Shown here: one piece after another, positions 6,319 to 28,563 of the stretch
Position numbering within the stretch: the first letter of the stretch is position 1
How the letters are laid out: each line of letters starts with the position of its first letter
Source: an uncultured Bacteroidales bacterium
GTDB lineage: Bacteria; Bacteroidota; Bacteroidia; Bacteroidales; UBA932
Assembly (NCBI GenBank): GCA_944325505.1
Contig: CALVAJ010000013.1
Coordinates: 1-55,823, forward strand
Direction: 5' to 3'
DNA: 55,823 nt
Notes under the pieces: generated by a model
Told to the model about the DNA's origin: nothing
Database searches by the model: none
The model's input: only the letters and a program-made list of their open reading frames with translations
Position numbers and translations under genes: made by a program

Positions 6319-6360
6319 GTTTTTCTCCCCGCGCTATAGCAGCGTTTTGTTTTGGGACTG

Positions 6361-6390
6361 CAAAGGTACAAAGGTTTTTTGAAAATGCAA
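6361..6390 (-). promoter_or_regulatory. Promoter of the tRNA-Gln/Met/Val cluster
   Basis: On the minus strand TACCTTTG (6368-6361) matches the Bacteroidetes -7 box TAnnTTTG, with TTG (6390-6388) 19 bases upstream as -33. It lies about 45 bases before tRNA-Gln. Confidence 0.65.
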
Positions 6391-6438
6391 TATTTTGTGA
6401 CAATTTTTATATGGTTGGCTGCAGAAAAGTGCGATATG

Positions 6439-6918
6439 CTATTTTATCAGCAGTACAGTGGCATAGACGGCGCATCCTTCGCCGCGTCCGATGAAGCCGA
6501 GTTTTTCGGTGGTGGTGGCCTTTACCGATACCCTGCTGATTTCAAGTCCCATTATTTCTGCGAGTGTCTGACGCATCGGCGTGATGTAAGGCGCCAGTTT
6601 GGGTCGTTGCATTGCTATGGTTATGTCGGCATTGCTGACTCTGTAGCCGGCAGAAGCGACCATTTCCATTGTTCTGTGCAGCAGTATCTTGCTGTCTATG
6701 CCCTTGAACTCTTCCGATGTGTCGGGGAAGTGTTTTCCTATATCGCCCAAGGCCAGGGCGCCAAGAAGCGCATCGCAGAGCGCATGTATGGCCACATCTC
6801 CGTCGGAGTGGGCGATGCATCCTGTCGGGCTGTCTATCCGTACTCCGCCTAAAAACAGCGGCAGTCCTTCCGCAAGGGCATGGACGTCATATCCGTTGCC
6901 TGTCCTGATATCTGTCAT
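6439..6918 (-). CDS. ispF: 2-C-methyl-D-erythritol 2,4-cyclodiphosphate synthase
   Basis: IspF catalyses the cyclisation step of the MEP isoprenoid pathway, turning CDP-ME 2-phosphate into ME-cPP and CMP in the cytoplasm. Visible signatures are GNGYDVH at residues 8-14 (metal-binding Asp and His), HSDGDVAIHALCDALLGAL around residue 40, the DIGKHFPDT loop, and KATTTEKLGFIGRGEG near the C-terminus. At 159 residues it is full length. It stands alone on the minus strand, with a good -7 box upstream and divergent from the small membrane protein gene at 7020. Confidence 0.97.
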   Translation of the reverse strand: MTDIRTGNGYDVHALAEGLPLFLGGVRIDSPTGCIAHSDGDVAIHALCDALLGALALGDIGKHFPDTSEEFKGIDSKILLHRTMEMVASAGYRVSNADITIAMQRPKLAPYITPMRQTLAEIMGLEISRVSVKATTTEKLGFIGRGEGCAVYATVLLIK

Positions 6919-24101: not shown

Positions 24102-25028
24102 ATGTCCAAACAAGGTTATATCCAGCGGTATCTGCTGATTATCCGGTTGATACGGAACAACCGGTACATTTCCCTCCCGGAACTTATCCGCAAAGTCGAG
24201 GACGGTCTGGCATATTATGAAGACACGGAAGATGTCGGCATCTCCCGAAGGACGATTCTGCGAGACCTGAAGGAAATCCGCTCGGGAATGGGTATCAGCA
24301 TTGAATACTCCAGGACTGAAAACGGCTACTATATACCTGAAGATGAGGACCAGGTATCCGATATCGAAAGGATATTGGAGCAGTACGACCTTATTACATC
24401 TCTCCATGCCCGGGAAGAGCTGTCTTCTATCGTCTTTCCCGAAAGGAGGAAGCCCCGTGGTACAGAACACCTGTCCCCGTTGATCCATGCGATCAAACGC
24501 AGCCTGATAGTAGAGTTCACCTATGTGAAATTCAACAATTCAGTCTTTCGCACTCGCAGTGTCATGCCTTATGCCTTGAAAGAAGGACGGGGCCGGTGGT
24601 ACCTGTTGGCTGTCGAGATAGGGGATAATGTCCGGCATGCCGGAGAAATAAAGAGTTGGGGACTTGACCGTATCCGGGACTTGAATGTTACTAAGAATCG
24701 GTTTACGCGGAATTCCGCGATAGATCCTGAAAAAGAGTTCAAGGATGTCGTAGGAGTCTATTCGAATAATGACCTTCCGGTCGAGGAAGTCATCCTGTCG
24801 TTCTCCCCAAAAGGAGGCCGGTACAACGAAGCTTTCCCACTTCATGAGTCGCAAGAGACACTGATAGATGACGGAAAGGAATTCCGTATCCGGTTGAAAG
24901 TCAAGATAACATACGACTTCAAACAGGAACTCCTTTCCCAAAGCGACGACCTTGTCGTCATCGCCCCCGAACACCTCCGCAAAGAACTCTGCGAAGTCTA
25001 CAGAAAAGCGCTGAAACGGATGGAATAG
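24102..25028 (+). CDS. WYL-domain transcriptional regulator
   Basis: The N-terminal helix-turn-helix (residues about 1-80, with SRRTILRDLKEI as a likely recognition helix) is followed by a WYL domain. The hallmark is GRWYLLAVEIG at residues about 165-175, and a C-terminal WCX-like part ends LVVIAPEHLRKELCEVYRKAL. WYL domains sense ligands such as nucleic-acid products or nucleotides, and they often control DNA-repair or defence genes. The neighbour downstream is an AT-rich PD-(D/E)xK-like gene with its own promoter, so the regulator could act on it (inference). Confidence 0.92.
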   Translation: MSKQGYIQRYLLIIRLIRNNRYISLPELIRKVEDGLAYYEDTEDVGISRRTILRDLKEIRSGMGISIEYSRTENGYYIPEDEDQVSDIERILEQYDLITSLHAREELSSIVFPERRKPRGTEHLSPLIHAIKRSLIVEFTYVKFNNSVFRTRSVMPYALKEGRGRWYLLAVEIGDNVRHAGEIKSWGLDRIRDLNVTKNRFTRNSAIDPEKEFKDVVGVYSNNDLPVEEVILSFSPKGGRYNEAFPLHESQETLIDDGKEFRIRLKVKITYDFKQELLSQSDDLVVIAPEHLRKELCEVYRKALKRME

Positions 25029-25090: not shown

Positions 25091-25771
25091 ATGAATACAG
25101 GCTATCATTTACTTTTAAAAAGTATTATGGATGAATCGTGGGAACGTTTTGTCCAACTATTCACTTCACATAAAATAATGTATCGGGATTTAAGTATGAA
25201 TGAAGCGATGTTTCAGTTTCATTTTGCAAATTTGATACAGACAATAGGTAATGATAAGGTGTCGCAAAATGAGACATTTGAGGTCAATCTGGAAACCAGA
25301 TGGTATCCTAATTGTAAAAATGGTAAAAAGAGCAAAAAGTATAAAGATATAGACATAACCTGCTATATTTATTGTGGAGAAGAAAAGAAATATTCATGCG
25401 CCATTGAACTTAAATTCAAGAGGAAACGAAATAAAAAAGGCACTTTTGCCAAAGATAGGATGTTCAATATATATAGAGATCTTGAATACCTTGAACATGA
25501 AATAGGCATTAATGGGAAGAATGGACAATATCAGGAAATTTATTCAGAAGGACGATTCTATTTTATGACGGATAATATTGATTATGTCAATCGGCAAGTA
25601 GAAAATACCGGGAAGGAAATTGTTCCGTTTGGCCTAAAGAAAGACACATGTACTGCTAGTGGGAAAATTGTCATAGACTCAAAGAAGGAACTTAATTTAA
25701 ATAAGTCATATCACATAAATTGGGTTTCTTATGGTGAATGGCACTTTCTTGAAATTGATGTAACCAAATAA
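25091..25771 (+). CDS. Putative PD-(D/E)xK nuclease-fold protein, AT-rich
   Basis: A 226-residue protein I cannot place in a named family. It does contain the spacing of a restriction-endonuclease-like core: Glu38 in an N-terminal helix, Asp86/Asp88 in KDIDITCYIY, and E106-L-K108 in CAIELKFKRK, i.e. E...D...ExK. The middle is lysine-rich (KNGKKSKKYKD, KRKRNKKG), as expected for a nucleic-acid binder. The gene is much AT-richer than its neighbours, which suggests recent transfer. It lies between a WYL regulator and the Ro60/Y RNA locus. Nuclease activity is inferred only from the motif. Confidence 0.6.
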   Translation: MNTGYHLLLKSIMDESWERFVQLFTSHKIMYRDLSMNEAMFQFHFANLIQTIGNDKVSQNETFEVNLETRWYPNCKNGKKSKKYKDIDITCYIYCGEEKKYSCAIELKFKRKRNKKGTFAKDRMFNIYRDLEYLEHEIGINGKNGQYQEIYSEGRFYFMTDNIDYVNRQVENTGKEIVPFGLKKDTCTASGKIVIDSKKELNLNKSYHINWVSYGEWHFLEIDVTK

Positions 25772-25796
25772 CACATATTTTTATTTTCCGGTGTCG

Positions 25797-25804
25797 TACT
25801 TTTG
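25797..25804 (+). promoter_or_regulatory. -7 box for the Y RNA-like transcript
   Basis: TACTTTTG (TAnnTTTG), with a T-rich stretch about 20 bases upstream. It predicts a transcript starting near 25812 that covers the tRNA-like RNA and could read on into the Ro60 gene. Confidence 0.55.
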
Positions 25805-25861
25805 CACTTATGGGATGTATATTTGCATCACTTGATCGGAATTGAGTTGGATGTGTGTAGT

Positions 25862-25994
25862 ACAGGCAGGTGCCGTAGGTCAGAACTACTTCGTAACTGG
25901 TACATGGTACGCCGGTTCGAATCCGGCCCGGCAAATAGCCGGTAGCTTAGTCGGTAGAGCACATGAAAAAGAGTCTGCCCGTTTGTCGCCCTGC
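25862..25994 (+). ncRNA. Y RNA-like (YrlA-type) RNA with a circularly permuted tRNA domain
   Basis: Between the promoter and the TROVE gene the elements of a tRNA core occur in permuted order. They are: T-arm GCCGG-TTCGAAT-CCGGC (25911-25927); a 5-bp acceptor mini-helix CCGGC/GCCGG (25928-25942) capped by AAATA; U8-A9; and D-arm GCTT-AGTCGGTA-GAGC (25945-25960). CATG (25903-25906) pairs with CATG (25962-25965) where an anticodon stem would start, leaving a 4-base variable loop. Outside, GGCAG (25865-25869) pairs with CTGCC (25975-25979), and a small hairpin GTAG/CTAC lies in the 5' arm. This is the layout described for bacterial YrlA RNAs: a stem for Ro binding plus a tRNA-mimic domain. The exact ends are estimates. 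Confidence 0.8.
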
Positions 25995-26011
25995 TTTTAA
26001 AAACAGAAGCT

Positions 26012-27535
26012 ATGAAATACAACAGCAATGCAAGGTCTTCAGCCATTTGTGCCAATTATGAAGGAGAAAAATCGTATGTGATGTCTCCGGAACTGGAATT
26101 GTACACCGCTGTTGTGACAAGTTCAATGGATCGGAGCTTTTATGAGACGAAGGATTCCAGAGAAGTCCGCATGGTGCGTCTCCTGCAGAAAGTGGATCCC
26201 GTATTTGTGGCGAAACTTGCAGTATATGCCCGGACGAAGATGAATCTGCGCAGTATTCCGCTTTTCCTCCTTGTGGAATTGGCGAAAATCCATAACGGCG
26301 ATTCCCTGGTCAGTTCAGCTGTCAGCAAAACAGTGTTGAGGGCTGATGAGATAACGGAGCTTCTGGCCTGTTATCAGTGGAGGAATGAATCAGGAAAAGG
26401 AGACAAGAAATTAGGAAAACTCTCCCGTCAGATCCAGAACGGACTCAAGATGTCGTTCAACAGATTCGATGAATATCAGTTTTCAAAATATGATAGAAAG
26501 AAGGCTGTGGTAAACTTGAAGGATGCTCTGTTCCTTGTGCACCCGAAAGCCAAAGACGACGCGCAGCAGATGATTTTCGATAAGATTGCCTCCGGTTCCC
26601 TTGATGTACCATATACCTGGGAGACCCGTTTTTCTGTATTGGGGCAGAAACATTTCGGCTCGGAAGAAGATAAGATGTTGGCATTCAGGAAACTCTGGGA
26701 AGAATTGCTCGATTCGGGGAAATTGGGGTACATGGCACTGCTACGCAACTTGAGGAATATCCTCAATTCAAATGTGTCGCAAGAACATATTTCAAGGCTT
26801 TGCAGAAGACTGTCCGATCCGGTTCATGTGGCGGCTTCAAAACAGCTTCCGTTCAGATTCCTTTCGGCATATAAAGAGATAAAGAATTGCAGGTCTGTAT
26901 ATTCTTCTTCTGTGCTTTCTGCTTTGGAGCAGGCTGCCCTGGCTTCGGCTGCCAATATTGACGGCTTCGGCCCGGAAACCGGAGTGCTTGTGGCTGCGGA
27001 TGTCTCTGCTTCGATGATGCATCCGGTTTCAATGAACAGTTCAGTGGAATTATATGATATTGCCATTCTCTTGTCGATGATATTGAAAAGCCGGTGTGCA
27101 TCGGTCATAAGCGGAATGTTCGGAGACAAGTGGAAAGTCATTAATATGCCTCAGTCACACATACTTGCCAATACTATGGAGATGCGCCGTCGCGAAGGCG
27201 AAGTAGGTTACAGCACGAACGGATATAAAGTTATTGACTGGCTGATAAAAGAGGATATACGGATGGACAAGGTGATGATTTTTACAGATTGCCAGATGTG
27301 GAACAGTTTATACTCGGATGCTCATATTGAAACATTGTGGAAAAAATACAAGTCCGTCTATCCCGGTGCGAAACTTTATTTGTTCGACCTTGCAGGTTAC
27401 GGCCGAACCCCTTTGCGGATTGAGAAAAACGATGTATTCTTGATTGCAGGCTGGAGCGACAAGGTATTTGATGTGCTGTCGGCTATAGAGAAAGGAGAAA
27501 GTACATTGTCTGAAATCCGGAAGATAGAGGTATAA
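26012..27535 (+). CDS. rsr: Ro60 orthologue (Rsr), TROVE-domain protein
   Basis: A 507-residue ring-type RNA-binding protein. Residues about 20-310 form the TROVE HEAT-like ring (for example RMVRLLQKVDPVFVAKLAVYAR and MALLRNLRNILNSNV). Residues about 320-500 form a von Willebrand A domain with an intact metal-site motif DVSAS (Asp330, Ser332, Ser334) and MIFTDCQMW. Bacterial Ro proteins bind Y RNAs and help degrade or check structured RNAs, in some species together with PNPase. A Y RNA-like element lies directly upstream, ending about 17 bases before the ATG. No rtcA/rtcB or pnp gene is next to it. Confidence 0.93.
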   Translation: MKYNSNARSSAICANYEGEKSYVMSPELELYTAVVTSSMDRSFYETKDSREVRMVRLLQKVDPVFVAKLAVYARTKMNLRSIPLFLLVELAKIHNGDSLVSSAVSKTVLRADEITELLACYQWRNESGKGDKKLGKLSRQIQNGLKMSFNRFDEYQFSKYDRKKAVVNLKDALFLVHPKAKDDAQQMIFDKIASGSLDVPYTWETRFSVLGQKHFGSEEDKMLAFRKLWEELLDSGKLGYMALLRNLRNILNSNVSQEHISRLCRRLSDPVHVAASKQLPFRFLSAYKEIKNCRSVYSSSVLSALEQAALASAANIDGFGPETGVLVAADVSASMMHPVSMNSSVELYDIAILLSMILKSRCASVISGMFGDKWKVINMPQSHILANTMEMRRREGEVGYSTNGYKVIDWLIKEDIRMDKVMIFTDCQMWNSLYSDAHIETLWKKYKSVYPGAKLYLFDLAGYGRTPLRIEKNDVFLIAGWSDKVFDVLSAIEKGESTLSEIRKIEV

Positions 27536-27565: not shown

Positions 27566-27760
27566 ATGCAAAAGACTTTATCGGCGTCCCTCTATGAGGA
27601 CGACAACCCTAATGAGTCAAGAGGCGACAGAGTTGAGATAAAAGACGGACTTGTAACATTCGAGCAGCGGGACTACAATATACCGGATACGTTCGACAAA
27701 TTTTCAGGGTTCATCTGTAATAATCATCTGGAAATACGATGTATATTGCGGTTAATATAA
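27566..27760 (+). CDS. Small open reading frame between rsr and the HD hydrolase gene
   Basis: A possible 64-residue protein (starts MQKTLSASLYEDD, ends EIRCILRLI) in the gap between two clear genes, on the same strand and 30 bases after the rsr stop. The part VEIKDGLVTFEQRDYNIPDTFDKFSGF looks protein-like but I do not recognise it. It may be a small partner or the remains of a longer gene. Confidence 0.35.
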   Translation: MQKTLSASLYEDDNPNESRGDRVEIKDGLVTFEQRDYNIPDTFDKFSGFICNNHLEIRCILRLI

Positions 27761-27769
27761 ACGAGTAAA

Positions 27770-28255
27770 ATGGCGATAGAAGAAACATTACAGATTGCGC
27801 TCGATGCGCACAAGGGTCAAAAAGACTTGGACGGCAAGCCTGCTATCCTGCACCCGATTGCTGTCGGTCTCATGGGCAGTAATGACGCAGAAATCAAGGC
27901 AGGTTTCCTGCACGATGTTGTCGAGGACACGAACTTGACTATTGATGATCTGCACCGGAAAGGTGTGGATGAGGATGTGCTTGCAGCATTGGAACTGCTG
28001 ACCCACGACAAGGAAACGGACTATTTCGAGTATGTCTATAAGATTGCCCATTCCGACAATTACACGGCTATCCATACGAAAATTAACGACTTGAAACACA
28101 ATTTAGACCGTGGCCGGAAGTCTTACAAGATGGCAAGGGAACTGAACGACACGGAAATGGCTGAACGGCTTAAAGGTATCAACGAAAAACATCGGAAAGC
28201 CTTGCAGATATTTGGAAATATACCCCTGTATGACAGTTTTGATAGTCTGGATTAA
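27770..28255 (+). CDS. HD-domain hydrolase, Mesh1-like (candidate small alarmone hydrolase)
   Basis: A 161-residue single-domain HD protein. All residues that Mesh1/Rel hydrolases use are present in order: His28 (HP), His48-Asp49 and Glu52-Asp53 (HDVVEDT), and Asp107 with Asn111 (NDLKHN). Such proteins remove pyrophosphate from (p)ppGpp, or in some cases act on NADPH. The match is to the hydrolase half of Rel only; there is no synthetase, TGS or ACT part. It follows rsr on the same strand and may share its transcript. Alarmone hydrolysis is a family-based prediction. Confidence 0.82.
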   Translation: MAIEETLQIALDAHKGQKDLDGKPAILHPIAVGLMGSNDAEIKAGFLHDVVEDTNLTIDDLHRKGVDEDVLAALELLTHDKETDYFEYVYKIAHSDNYTAIHTKINDLKHNLDRGRKSYKMARELNDTEMAERLKGINEKHRKALQIFGNIPLYDSFDSLD

Positions 28256-28258
28256 AAA

Positions 28259-28519
28259 ACCGAGGGGATAGAGTGGAGTGCCGTTATCGGCACCGGGTCA
28301 AGTCCGGTCAGTCGGCACCCTAATACCTTCTGAAATGGCTCTGCACCCGTTCAACCTTGCCGAATCGTGTGCGTTTGTACGCCTTGACTCTGACAAGTCT
28401 GACAATCTCCGCTCTGACGGAAATTATGACGAGTCTGCAATATGTTCTTCTTTTCATTATAGAATTCTTACTTTAGCCGTAAGAACAATTGGCTCCTCGT
28501 ATAAGTACCTCCCCTCGGT
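28259..28519. other. Intergenic region bounded by a perfect 10-bp inverted repeat, candidate structured RNA
   Basis: ACCGAGGGGA (28259-28268), 3 bases after the HD gene stop, pairs perfectly with 28510-28519. Inside are hairpin GTGCCG/CGGCAC (28278-28283 with 28288-28293, loop TTAT), a T-arm-like stem-loop ACCGG-GTCAAGT-CCGGT (28292-28308), a second CGGCAC at 28313-28318, and a TTCTTAC/GTAAGAA hairpin near 28470. An 83-codon reading frame crosses it but looks unlike a protein. Overall this suggests a folded RNA of about 260 nt, not identified. Confidence 0.45.
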
Positions 28520-28527
28520 CGTAGTCT

Positions 28528-28563
28528 AAAAAAGCAGACATCCATTTAGGGATAGATGCCTGC
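28528..28563 (-). terminator. Rho-independent terminator (minus strand)
   Basis: On the minus strand GCAGGCATC pairs with GATGTCTGC (one internal mismatch; 28563-28534) and is followed by TTTTTT (28533-28528). The nearest upstream element on that strand is structured repeat copy B, so it may end a transcript through that repeat. A further 9-bp hairpin (AAAATCATT, 28579-28601) lies between them. Confidence 0.55.

What the first reader, a model, noticed from the sequence alone, without database searches (positions are those of the whole stretch)
25797..27535. Ro60 gene preceded by a Y RNA-like RNA that is a circularly permuted tRNA
Directly upstream of the TROVE gene the sequence holds, in this order, a consensus T-arm (TTCGAAT loop), a 5-bp acceptor-like helix closed by AAATA, U8-A9, and a consensus D-arm (A14, G18-G19, A21 in place). 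Flanks CATG/CATG and GGCAG/CTGCC close the structure where an anticodon stem would be. All bases needed for the D-loop/T-loop contact are present, so chance is very unlikely. This matches the permuted tRNA mimic reported for bacterial YrlA RNAs bound by Rsr. The 5' arm has a large asymmetric loop with a GTAG/CTAC hairpin, and I do not see the GNCGAA-type Ro motif of enterobacterial Y RNAs, so the Ro-binding part may be of a different type.
Basis: partly seen in the sequence, partly recalled or inferred. Interest (0 to 1): 0.85.

Follow-up and report, generated by a model that had tools for sequence, protein, structure and literature searches.

The report
Bacterial Y RNA beside Ro60 gene
Just upstream of a Ro60 (rsr) gene in a Bacteroidales genome lies a small RNA gene whose stem looks like a Ro60-binding stem and whose head looks like a tRNA with its parts in rearranged order; related Bacteroidota RNAs carry other imitations of tRNA and, in a few cases, of ribosomal RNA.

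Summary
Window 25865-25995 (+), 16 bases before the rsr start codon, encodes a YrlA-type bacterial Y RNA. A covariance model from 28 relatives, window left out, finds it at 101.2 bits (E 4e-23); the next window match has 13.8 bits. In the 33-pair structure 29 pairs change on both sides. Joined end to end, its head is called a tRNA by ARAGORN, as are 51 of 118 heads (window included) and 0 of 118 shuffled ones. Rfam's YrlA model matches only the tRNA-like part, below its cut-off (36.5 against 69 bits). In Bacteroidota rsr loci the same stem carries exchangeable heads: permuted tRNAs without or with an anticodon arm, heads without tRNA arms, and in three loci a piece of 23S rRNA. Neighbours include WYL regulators, RtcB or RlaP, and same-strand tRNA genes. 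Best reading: Rsr binds the stem and the head holds an effector, PNPase by precedent; both are inferred. New member of a known kind; the wider head set may be new.

The parts
25865..25995 (+). Y RNA body: Ro-type stem closing a permuted tRNA-like head (131 nt)
   Evidence: R1 model 101.2 bits E 4.4e-23; single pattern hit in the window; covariation in 28 relatives
25865..25885 (+). 5' arm of Ro stem: GGCAGG 25865-25870, bulged U 25871, GC 25872-25873, loop CGUAG 25874-25878, upper helix 25879-25885
   Evidence: bulged U in 120 of 120 RNAs; compensatory C:G to U:A at the GC/GC step
25886..25902 (+). junction CUACUUCGUAACUGGUA with the conserved CUUCG
   Evidence: CTTCG in 106 of 120 RNAs
25903..25910 (+). 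CAUG (3' strand of the anticodon-stem remnant) and variable-loop-like GUAC
   Evidence: probability 0.0 in the single-sequence ensemble
25911..25927 (+). T-arm with loop UUCGAAU
25928..25942 (+). acceptor-like helix CCGGC/GCCGG closed by AAAUA
25943..25960 (+). U8-A9 and D-arm
25962..25965 (+). CAUG, 5' strand of the anticodon-stem remnant
25973..25998 (+). 3' arm of Ro stem: upper helix 25973-25979, loop CGUUUGUC 25980-25987, GC 25988-25989, CCUGCU 25990-25995, T tail to 25998
   Evidence: the consensus scan found no terminator-like site
26012..27535 (+). rsr, Ro60 orthologue, 507 aa, TROVE plus vWA_Ro60
   Evidence: Pfam; 52-65% identity to 11 relatives of the same phylum, D330, S332, S334 invariant
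25791..25825 (+). operator-like GTGTCGTACTTTTGCAC 25791-25807 and -7-like TATATTTG 25818-25825, with the same 10-nt gap as in congener L007 (788-804, 815-822)
   Evidence: comparison by eye, untested; the sigma-70 scan found no promoter-like site
24102..25028 (+). WYL-WCX regulator gene
   Evidence: Pfam; blastp relatives in 37 of 80 rsr loci

Best explanation
25865-25995 encodes a bacterial Y RNA of the YrlA class. Its two ends form a stem with a bulged U and an internal loop that is bound by the Rsr (Ro60) ring encoded directly downstream. The head is a tRNA core in permuted order (T-arm, acceptor helix, U8-A9, D-arm) that folds like the tRNA elbow and holds a tRNA-recognising or nuclease partner next to Rsr, by precedent PNPase, making a Ro60-Y RNA-nuclease particle that handles damaged or misfolded structured RNA. 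A WYL-type regulator probably controls the unit under RNA or DNA damage. Shown here: sequence, covarying structure, gene context. Inferred: transcription, Rsr binding, effector, regulation.
For: R1 match to the window, which was not in the training set, 101.2 bits. 94.4% paired cells against 70.9% shuffled, 29 of 33 pairs with two-sided changes, slid controls 39-49%. Ro-stem pattern: 128 hits on the rsr strand in 64 of 80 loci against 0, 2 and 0 in minus, reversed and complement controls. Swapped-partner tests for the Ro helices, T-stem and acceptor and anticodon-stem remnant. Joined heads 51 of 118 against 0 of 118 shuffled and 0 of 118 reversed. RtcB in 15 and RlaP in 6 of 43 hand-picked downstream neighbours; WYL in 20 of 54 hand-picked upstream neighbours. 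PNPase genes or fragments in the same genome. Salmonella YrlA and Rsr bind PNPase: passages of PMC9879122, also PMC8394870.
Against: No transcript or binding data. Single-sequence folding does not favour the tRNA-like form. The Rfam YrlA score is below its cut-off. The congener L007/L048 RNA keeps the stem without T, acceptor or D arms, and 28 of 64 loci with Y RNAs have no RNA with both T and D anchors, so the head is not universal. 16 of 80 loci gave no pattern hit (some flanks are short and the pattern misses variants). No RtcB or RlaP was seen next to the window's rsr.
Confidence: 0.85

Rival explanations
1. Remnant of two tandem tRNA genes: the 3' half of one followed by the 5' half of the next gives T-arm, acceptor, D-arm order without any Y RNA.
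For: Tandem tRNA genes do score with R1: 34.8 bits in the own genome (C20) and 40.4-48.6 bits in L149, L151, L153-L156. Such a pair is a plausible evolutionary source of the head.
Against: These scores are far below 101.2 bits; L153-L156 and C20 match only inner model positions (29-109, 40-103 or 32-109), without the Ro stem. The window has a 5-base acceptor loop and both Ro helices, and no tRNA is called there.
Confidence: 0.03
2. The element is a cis-acting leader of the rsr mRNA (riboregulator or attenuator, perhaps Rsr binding its own leader) rather than a separate RNA.
For: It ends 16 bases before the rsr ATG with only four T; the terminator scan found no site.
Against: 75 of 128 related RNAs lie downstream of rsr and several are in tandem; the L007 RNA is followed by nine T.
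Confidence: 0.12
3. It is a Y RNA, but the head serves as a decoy or sensor for enzymes that attack or modify tRNA (anticodon nucleases, TruB, Dus) instead of tethering PNPase.
For: Many relatives keep anticodon-loop bases or a full anticodon arm; RNA-repair neighbours and same-strand tRNA genes. Modification by TruB and DusA is described in a passage of PMC8394870, and a possible competitive-inhibitor role in a passage of PMC7790460.
Against: The window head has no recognisable anticodon by eye; fragments of Salmonella YrlA were not detected when tRNAs were cleaved (passage of PMC7790460), although that passage itself leaves the inhibitor reading open.
Confidence: 0.3

Closest known systems
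YrlA bacterial Y RNA (Rfam RF02553; Salmonella YrlA)
   Same: rsr neighbour; end-paired stem plus tRNA-like head in T-acceptor-D order; 3' strand UUGUCGCC-like; Rfam hit to the head
   Different: 36.5 against 69 bits; Ro stem GGUGCCGUAG ... CUUCG ... CGNNUGUCGC with an invariant bulged U; lies upstream of rsr near a WYL gene instead of in the RtcR-controlled rsr-yrlBA-rtcBA operon of Salmonella (passage)
Deinococcus radiodurans Y RNA / RYPER (passages)
   Same: Ro60 orthologue with a Y RNA that tethers PNPase
   Different: not compared by sequence here
Permuted tRNA genes of algae and archaea (recalled)
   Same: same kind of segment reordering
   Different: those are processed into working tRNAs; this head lacks an anticodon arm and sits inside a Ro stem

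Membership tests
YrlA / bacterial Y RNA | encoded next to an rsr (TROVE) gene | tested here: met
   rsr 26012-27535 starts 16 bases after 25995
YrlA / bacterial Y RNA | long stem formed by the RNA's two ends, of Ro-binding type | tested here: met
   covarying stem with invariant bulged U; real Rsr binding not tested
YrlA / bacterial Y RNA | permuted tRNA-like head (T, acceptor, D arms) | tested here: met
YrlA / bacterial Y RNA | Rfam RF02553 gathering score of 69 bits | tested here: not met
   36.5 bits, model positions 21-89 only. Hits in relatives also stayed below 69 (best 42.7). This is a curated cut-off of one model, not a biological feature
YrlA / bacterial Y RNA | binding to Rsr and tether to PNPase | not testable with these tools
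   PNPase matches in the own genome on C19 (over cut-off) and C27 (fragment)
YrlA / bacterial Y RNA | tRNA-type modified bases (pseudouridine, D) | not testable with these tools
   the target loops are present
Ro60 / Rsr protein | TROVE plus vWA domain with D-x-S-x-S | tested here: met
   PF05731 E 2e-23, PF25045 E 7.9e-9; D330, S332, S334 invariant in 12 sequences
canonical tRNA | called as tRNA in linear order | tested here: not met
   no call at this place; only the joined head is called

The most novel reading that the evidence does not exclude
In Bacteroidota, Y RNAs form a modular adaptor set: one constant Ro60-binding stem displays interchangeable copies of stable RNAs that are cut in biological conflicts. 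The heads are tRNAs permuted at three different points (in the anticodon stem or loop, between D and anticodon arms, or inside the D-loop, the last two keeping the anticodon arm), an unpermuted tRNA (L109), and a conserved 23S rRNA piece (L112, L113, L116). They are often encoded with extra tRNA genes, RNA ligases and WYL regulators. Ro60 particles would then act as bait, sensor or repair scaffold against ribotoxins, and the window carries a minimal member.
Probability: 0.3. Interest if true: 0.85.

Novelty: new member of a known kind. Interest (0 to 1): 0.6.

Why it matters
It gives Bacteroidota Y RNAs a sequence-defined Ro-stem signature, and in the loci checked Rfam's cut-off misses them, so they can now be searched for systematically. 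The relatives suggest that the head is an exchangeable part and that some heads keep whole anticodon arms or copy 23S rRNA, which makes the open question of what bacterial Y RNAs present to their partners directly testable. Commensal bacteria expressing Rsr particles have been reported as a possible trigger of lupus autoimmunity (passage in PMC8394870).

Tried and rejected
Single-sequence folding gave no support (z -0.41; 68 of 200 shuffles folded as well) and is not used as evidence. A first covariation script used too strict a D-arm pattern and kept 12 of 120 RNAs, without the window. The loosened one found a T anchor in 68 and T plus D in 51 of 120. Some of these 51 anchors are wrong or doubtful because the first match was taken to avoid selecting for pairing: L053_3674, L082_6262, L113_6376, L112_6233, L120_5595, L076_5682, L051_3743, L055_3653, L113_5727.

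Limits of the tests. The pattern was drawn after looking at the window, L007-L010 and the Bacteroidales loci, which are in the test set. One search required at least 4 closing pairs, so the lower-stem pairing is circular; the upper helix, the C:G/U:A step and the bulge were not required. 9 composite entries of 129 were dropped before and 2 more inserts. In one search up to 440 end trims were tried per head, the same for one shuffled and one reversed copy of each; L094_6303, L106_6207 and L088_4816 were called in only 2, 3 and 8 trims, 14 of the 51 shown calls have no assigned amino acid, and one of the 51 (L109_6067) is an unpermuted tRNA. The 28 RNAs of A4 were hand-picked for clear T and D arms, so describes that class only. 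Relatedness between RNAs is not corrected.

R1 in the family tallied 121 of 249 genomes at E <= 0.001; I do not count these as Y RNAs. Of nine opened loci at 40-49 bits, six have two or more tRNA genes (L149, L151, L153-L156), L148 has one tRNA gene beside the hit, L152 is unexplained, and L150 is the true congener Y RNA at 46.0 bits, so a limit of about 50 bits loses it. Six genomes have a hit above 50 bits: G000, G245, G115, G079, G038, G146. In five rsr or a part of it is near (window, L144, L145, L146, L147); none was seen in the 2.3 kb of L143 (G146), which ends 650 bases downstream at a contig end.

A suspicion that the GGGG...CCCC heads (L101, L095, L100, L115, L080 and others) are cobalamin-riboswitch-like: Rfam gave no such hit at E <= 0.5. 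Rfam gave no LSU rRNA hit at E <= 0.1 for L113 or L116, but blastn matched L116 to E. coli 23S rRNA. A plasmid search for 25812-26011 found nothing. Chen 2014, Wang 2018, Sim 2018 and Burroughs 2016 are not held (the DOI tried for Wang 2018 was recalled and differs from the one printed), so I cannot say whether Bacteroidota Y RNAs or anticodon-bearing heads are in print. Literature searches; one search found no held paper with both 'circularly permuted tRNA' and 'Y RNA'. Of the papers named, I saw passages of PMC8394870, PMC7790460, PMC9879122 and PMC7824862; the rest only as listings.

Full report
WHAT IS THERE. T-arm 25911-25927, acceptor-like helix 25928-25942 with loop AAATA, U8-A9, and D-arm 25945-25960 with G18G19 follow one another in an order permuted relative to tRNA. 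Neither ARAGORN nor Rfam at gathering thresholds calls anything here. Relaxed Rfam scanning gives YrlA at 25901-25969, 36.5 bits, E 1.2e-6 in 311 bases, but only model positions 21-89 and below the cut-off of 69. The gene 16 bases downstream is a Ro60 orthologue with TROVE and vWA_Ro60 domains.

RELATIVES. TROVE genes are sparse: 5 of 249 genomes of the family and 28 of 395 sampled in the phylum, the own genome counted in both. A scan of named genomes kept the best 80 of 570 confirmed rsr loci; by their titles I take all to be Bacteroidota. In these, a pattern for the Ro stem, drawn after looking at the window and some of the loci, with at least 4 closing pairs required, hits 128 times on the rsr strand in 64 of 80 loci, and 0, 2 and 0 times in the minus, reversed and complement controls over 706 kb. 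The window has exactly one hit, 25865-25995. 53 of the 128 lie upstream and 75 downstream of rsr.

THE RO STEM. Over 120 RNAs (window included, 9 composite entries dropped) the base after the closing helix is a bulged U in 120 of 120. The next step is GC/GC with C:G in 91, U:A in 26 and U:G in 3, which is compensatory change. A second helix beyond an internal loop is paired in 78-97% of RNAs per position, against 51-83% with partners swapped between RNAs; the closing helix itself was selected for.

THE HEAD. In the 51 of 120 RNAs with T and D anchors, the three outer T-stem pairs are 96-98% paired (44-78% swapped), acceptor pairs 1-5 are 86-92% (40-74% swapped), and pairs 6 and 7 are 73% and 59% (40% and 39%). 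In the 37 with a recognisable D-arm end, a remnant of the anticodon stem joins the flanks: mean 2.59 consecutive pairs against 1.28 swapped, maximum 1.81 in 1000 swaps. In the window this is CATG/CATG. At the place of tRNA position 33, U occurs in 35 of 48 distinct sequences, and at 37 a purine in 36 of 48. Many heads therefore seem to keep the 3' half of an anticodon loop; the window does not clearly do so. Joined end to end, heads are called tRNA by ARAGORN in 51 of 118 (window included; one, L109_6067, is unpermuted), against 0 of 118 dinucleotide-shuffled and 0 of 118 reversed heads. The other side: 69 of 120 RNAs lack the T plus D anchors, and 28 of 64 loci with Y RNAs have none that shows both.

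INDEPENDENT SCORE. On an alignment of 28 hand-picked RNAs without the window (A4), a 33-pair structure has 94.4% paired cells (shuffled 70.9%), 29 pairs changed on both sides, and no shuffle of 500 reaching any of the five measures. Sliding partners by 1-3 columns drops pairing to 39-49%. The covariance model R1 from it finds the window RNA at 101.2 bits, E 4.4e-23 (rough calibration), over its full length; the next window match is 13.8 bits. In the own genome the next is 34.8 bits, at tandem tRNA genes. Of nine loci of the family opened at 40-49 bits, six hold tandem tRNA genes and one is a true Y RNA, that of the congener at 46.0 bits.

EXCHANGE OF HEADS. The congener L007/L048 has the same stem upstream of its rsr, and the same ATGGTAC shortly after the CUUCG, but no T, acceptor or D arm. 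By inspection, other heads are permuted with the break between D and anticodon arms (L044_3725, L045_3851, L050_3452) or inside the D-loop (L044_3130, L049_246, L053_3674, L056_3264, L057_88, L082_6262). L109_6067 holds a tRNA in normal order (Rfam 45.4 bits). L116_7607 matches E. coli 23S rRNA: 34 bases at 100% in one record, query bases 22-67 at 91.5% in another. The same CTAAGGTAGC block in a Ro stem occurs in L112 and L113. A fourth occurrence, in L094, is part of a permuted tRNA head and not of this kind, and one on the minus strand of L086 was not examined.

NEIGHBOURS. The window has a WYL-WCX regulator upstream, with blastp relatives in 37 of 80 loci. I scanned 54 of 76 nearest upstream and 43 of 76 nearest downstream neighbours (counts), hand-picked, all of the downstream ones on the rsr strand: 20 of 54 are WYL; 15 of 43 are RtcB and 6 RlaP, with one Hen1_L and one RNA_lig_T4_1 match. 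The window's rsr has no such gene next to it among the ten proteins scanned; an HD_4-like protein (below Pfam's cut-off) follows, with a relative beside rsr in L048 only. ARAGORN tRNA genes in 23 of 80 loci, 109 on the rsr strand. Four of these calls lie in Y RNA heads; without them 110 remain in 21 loci, 105 on the rsr strand. rsr relatives are found in 80 phage records, all under 60% identity.

HOW IT LIKELY WORKS. Papers held say that the YrlA stem binds Rsr, the head binds PNPase, and the Salmonella operon answers to tRNA fragments via RtcR (passages of PMC8394870, PMC7790460 and PMC9879122). By analogy the window RNA would bind its Rsr by the bulged-U stem and hold an effector with the tRNA elbow; PNPase matches are present in the genome. 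Each of these steps is inferred. The WYL regulator would take the place of RtcR; an operator-like 17-mer sits at the same distance from a -7-like element in the window and in L007, which is suggestive only.

VERDICT. The RNA gene is real and belongs with the YrlA-type Y RNAs; it fails Rfam's cut-off, with its Ro stem left unmatched. The single RNA is a new member of a known kind. The wider set of heads is the more surprising part, and I could not check it against the main papers, which are not held.

Noticed in passing
L116 7607-7830, L113 6376-6620, L112 about 6350-6580: Ro-stem RNAs whose head copies a conserved piece of 23S rRNA (CTATAACGGTCCTAAGGTAGCG in L116; CTAAGGTAGC shared by the three) instead of tRNA.
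   Followed up: partly
L044, L068, L095, L112, L115, L117, L119 and others: 110 tRNA genes outside Y RNA heads in 21 of 80 rsr loci, 105 on the rsr strand, seven loci with 8-17. In the genome of L117, 11 of 62 tRNA hits lie in the array.
   Followed up: partly
L049_246, L053_3674, L056_3264, L057_88, L044_3130, L082_6262: Y RNA heads that look like near-complete tRNAs permuted inside the D-loop, with an anticodon arm; the anticodons called are ggg, cag, acg, acg, gag, caa.
   Followed up: partly
window 28258-28525: Possible long-range stem ACCGAGGGGA / TCCCCTCGGT enclosing a strongly folding stretch (MFE -91.9 kcal/mol for 28255-28545, no shuffle control) with a T-loop-like GGTCAAGTCC; no blastn match in L047, L048 or L050.
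   Followed up: partly
window 25091-25771: 226-aa ORF between the WYL gene and the Y RNA without Pfam match at E 0.001 and without blastp relative among the ORFs of the 80 loci.
   Followed up: partly
window 27566-27760: Short ORF of about 65 codons between rsr and the HD_4-like gene; in congener L048 the HD_4-like ORF follows rsr directly.
   Followed up: no
upstream of rsr in L016, L018, L020-L022, L024-L026, L028-L034: Recurrent inverted repeat of the type CTGCGCA-N8-TGCGCA shortly before rsr, with variations, a candidate operator (by eye).
   Followed up: no
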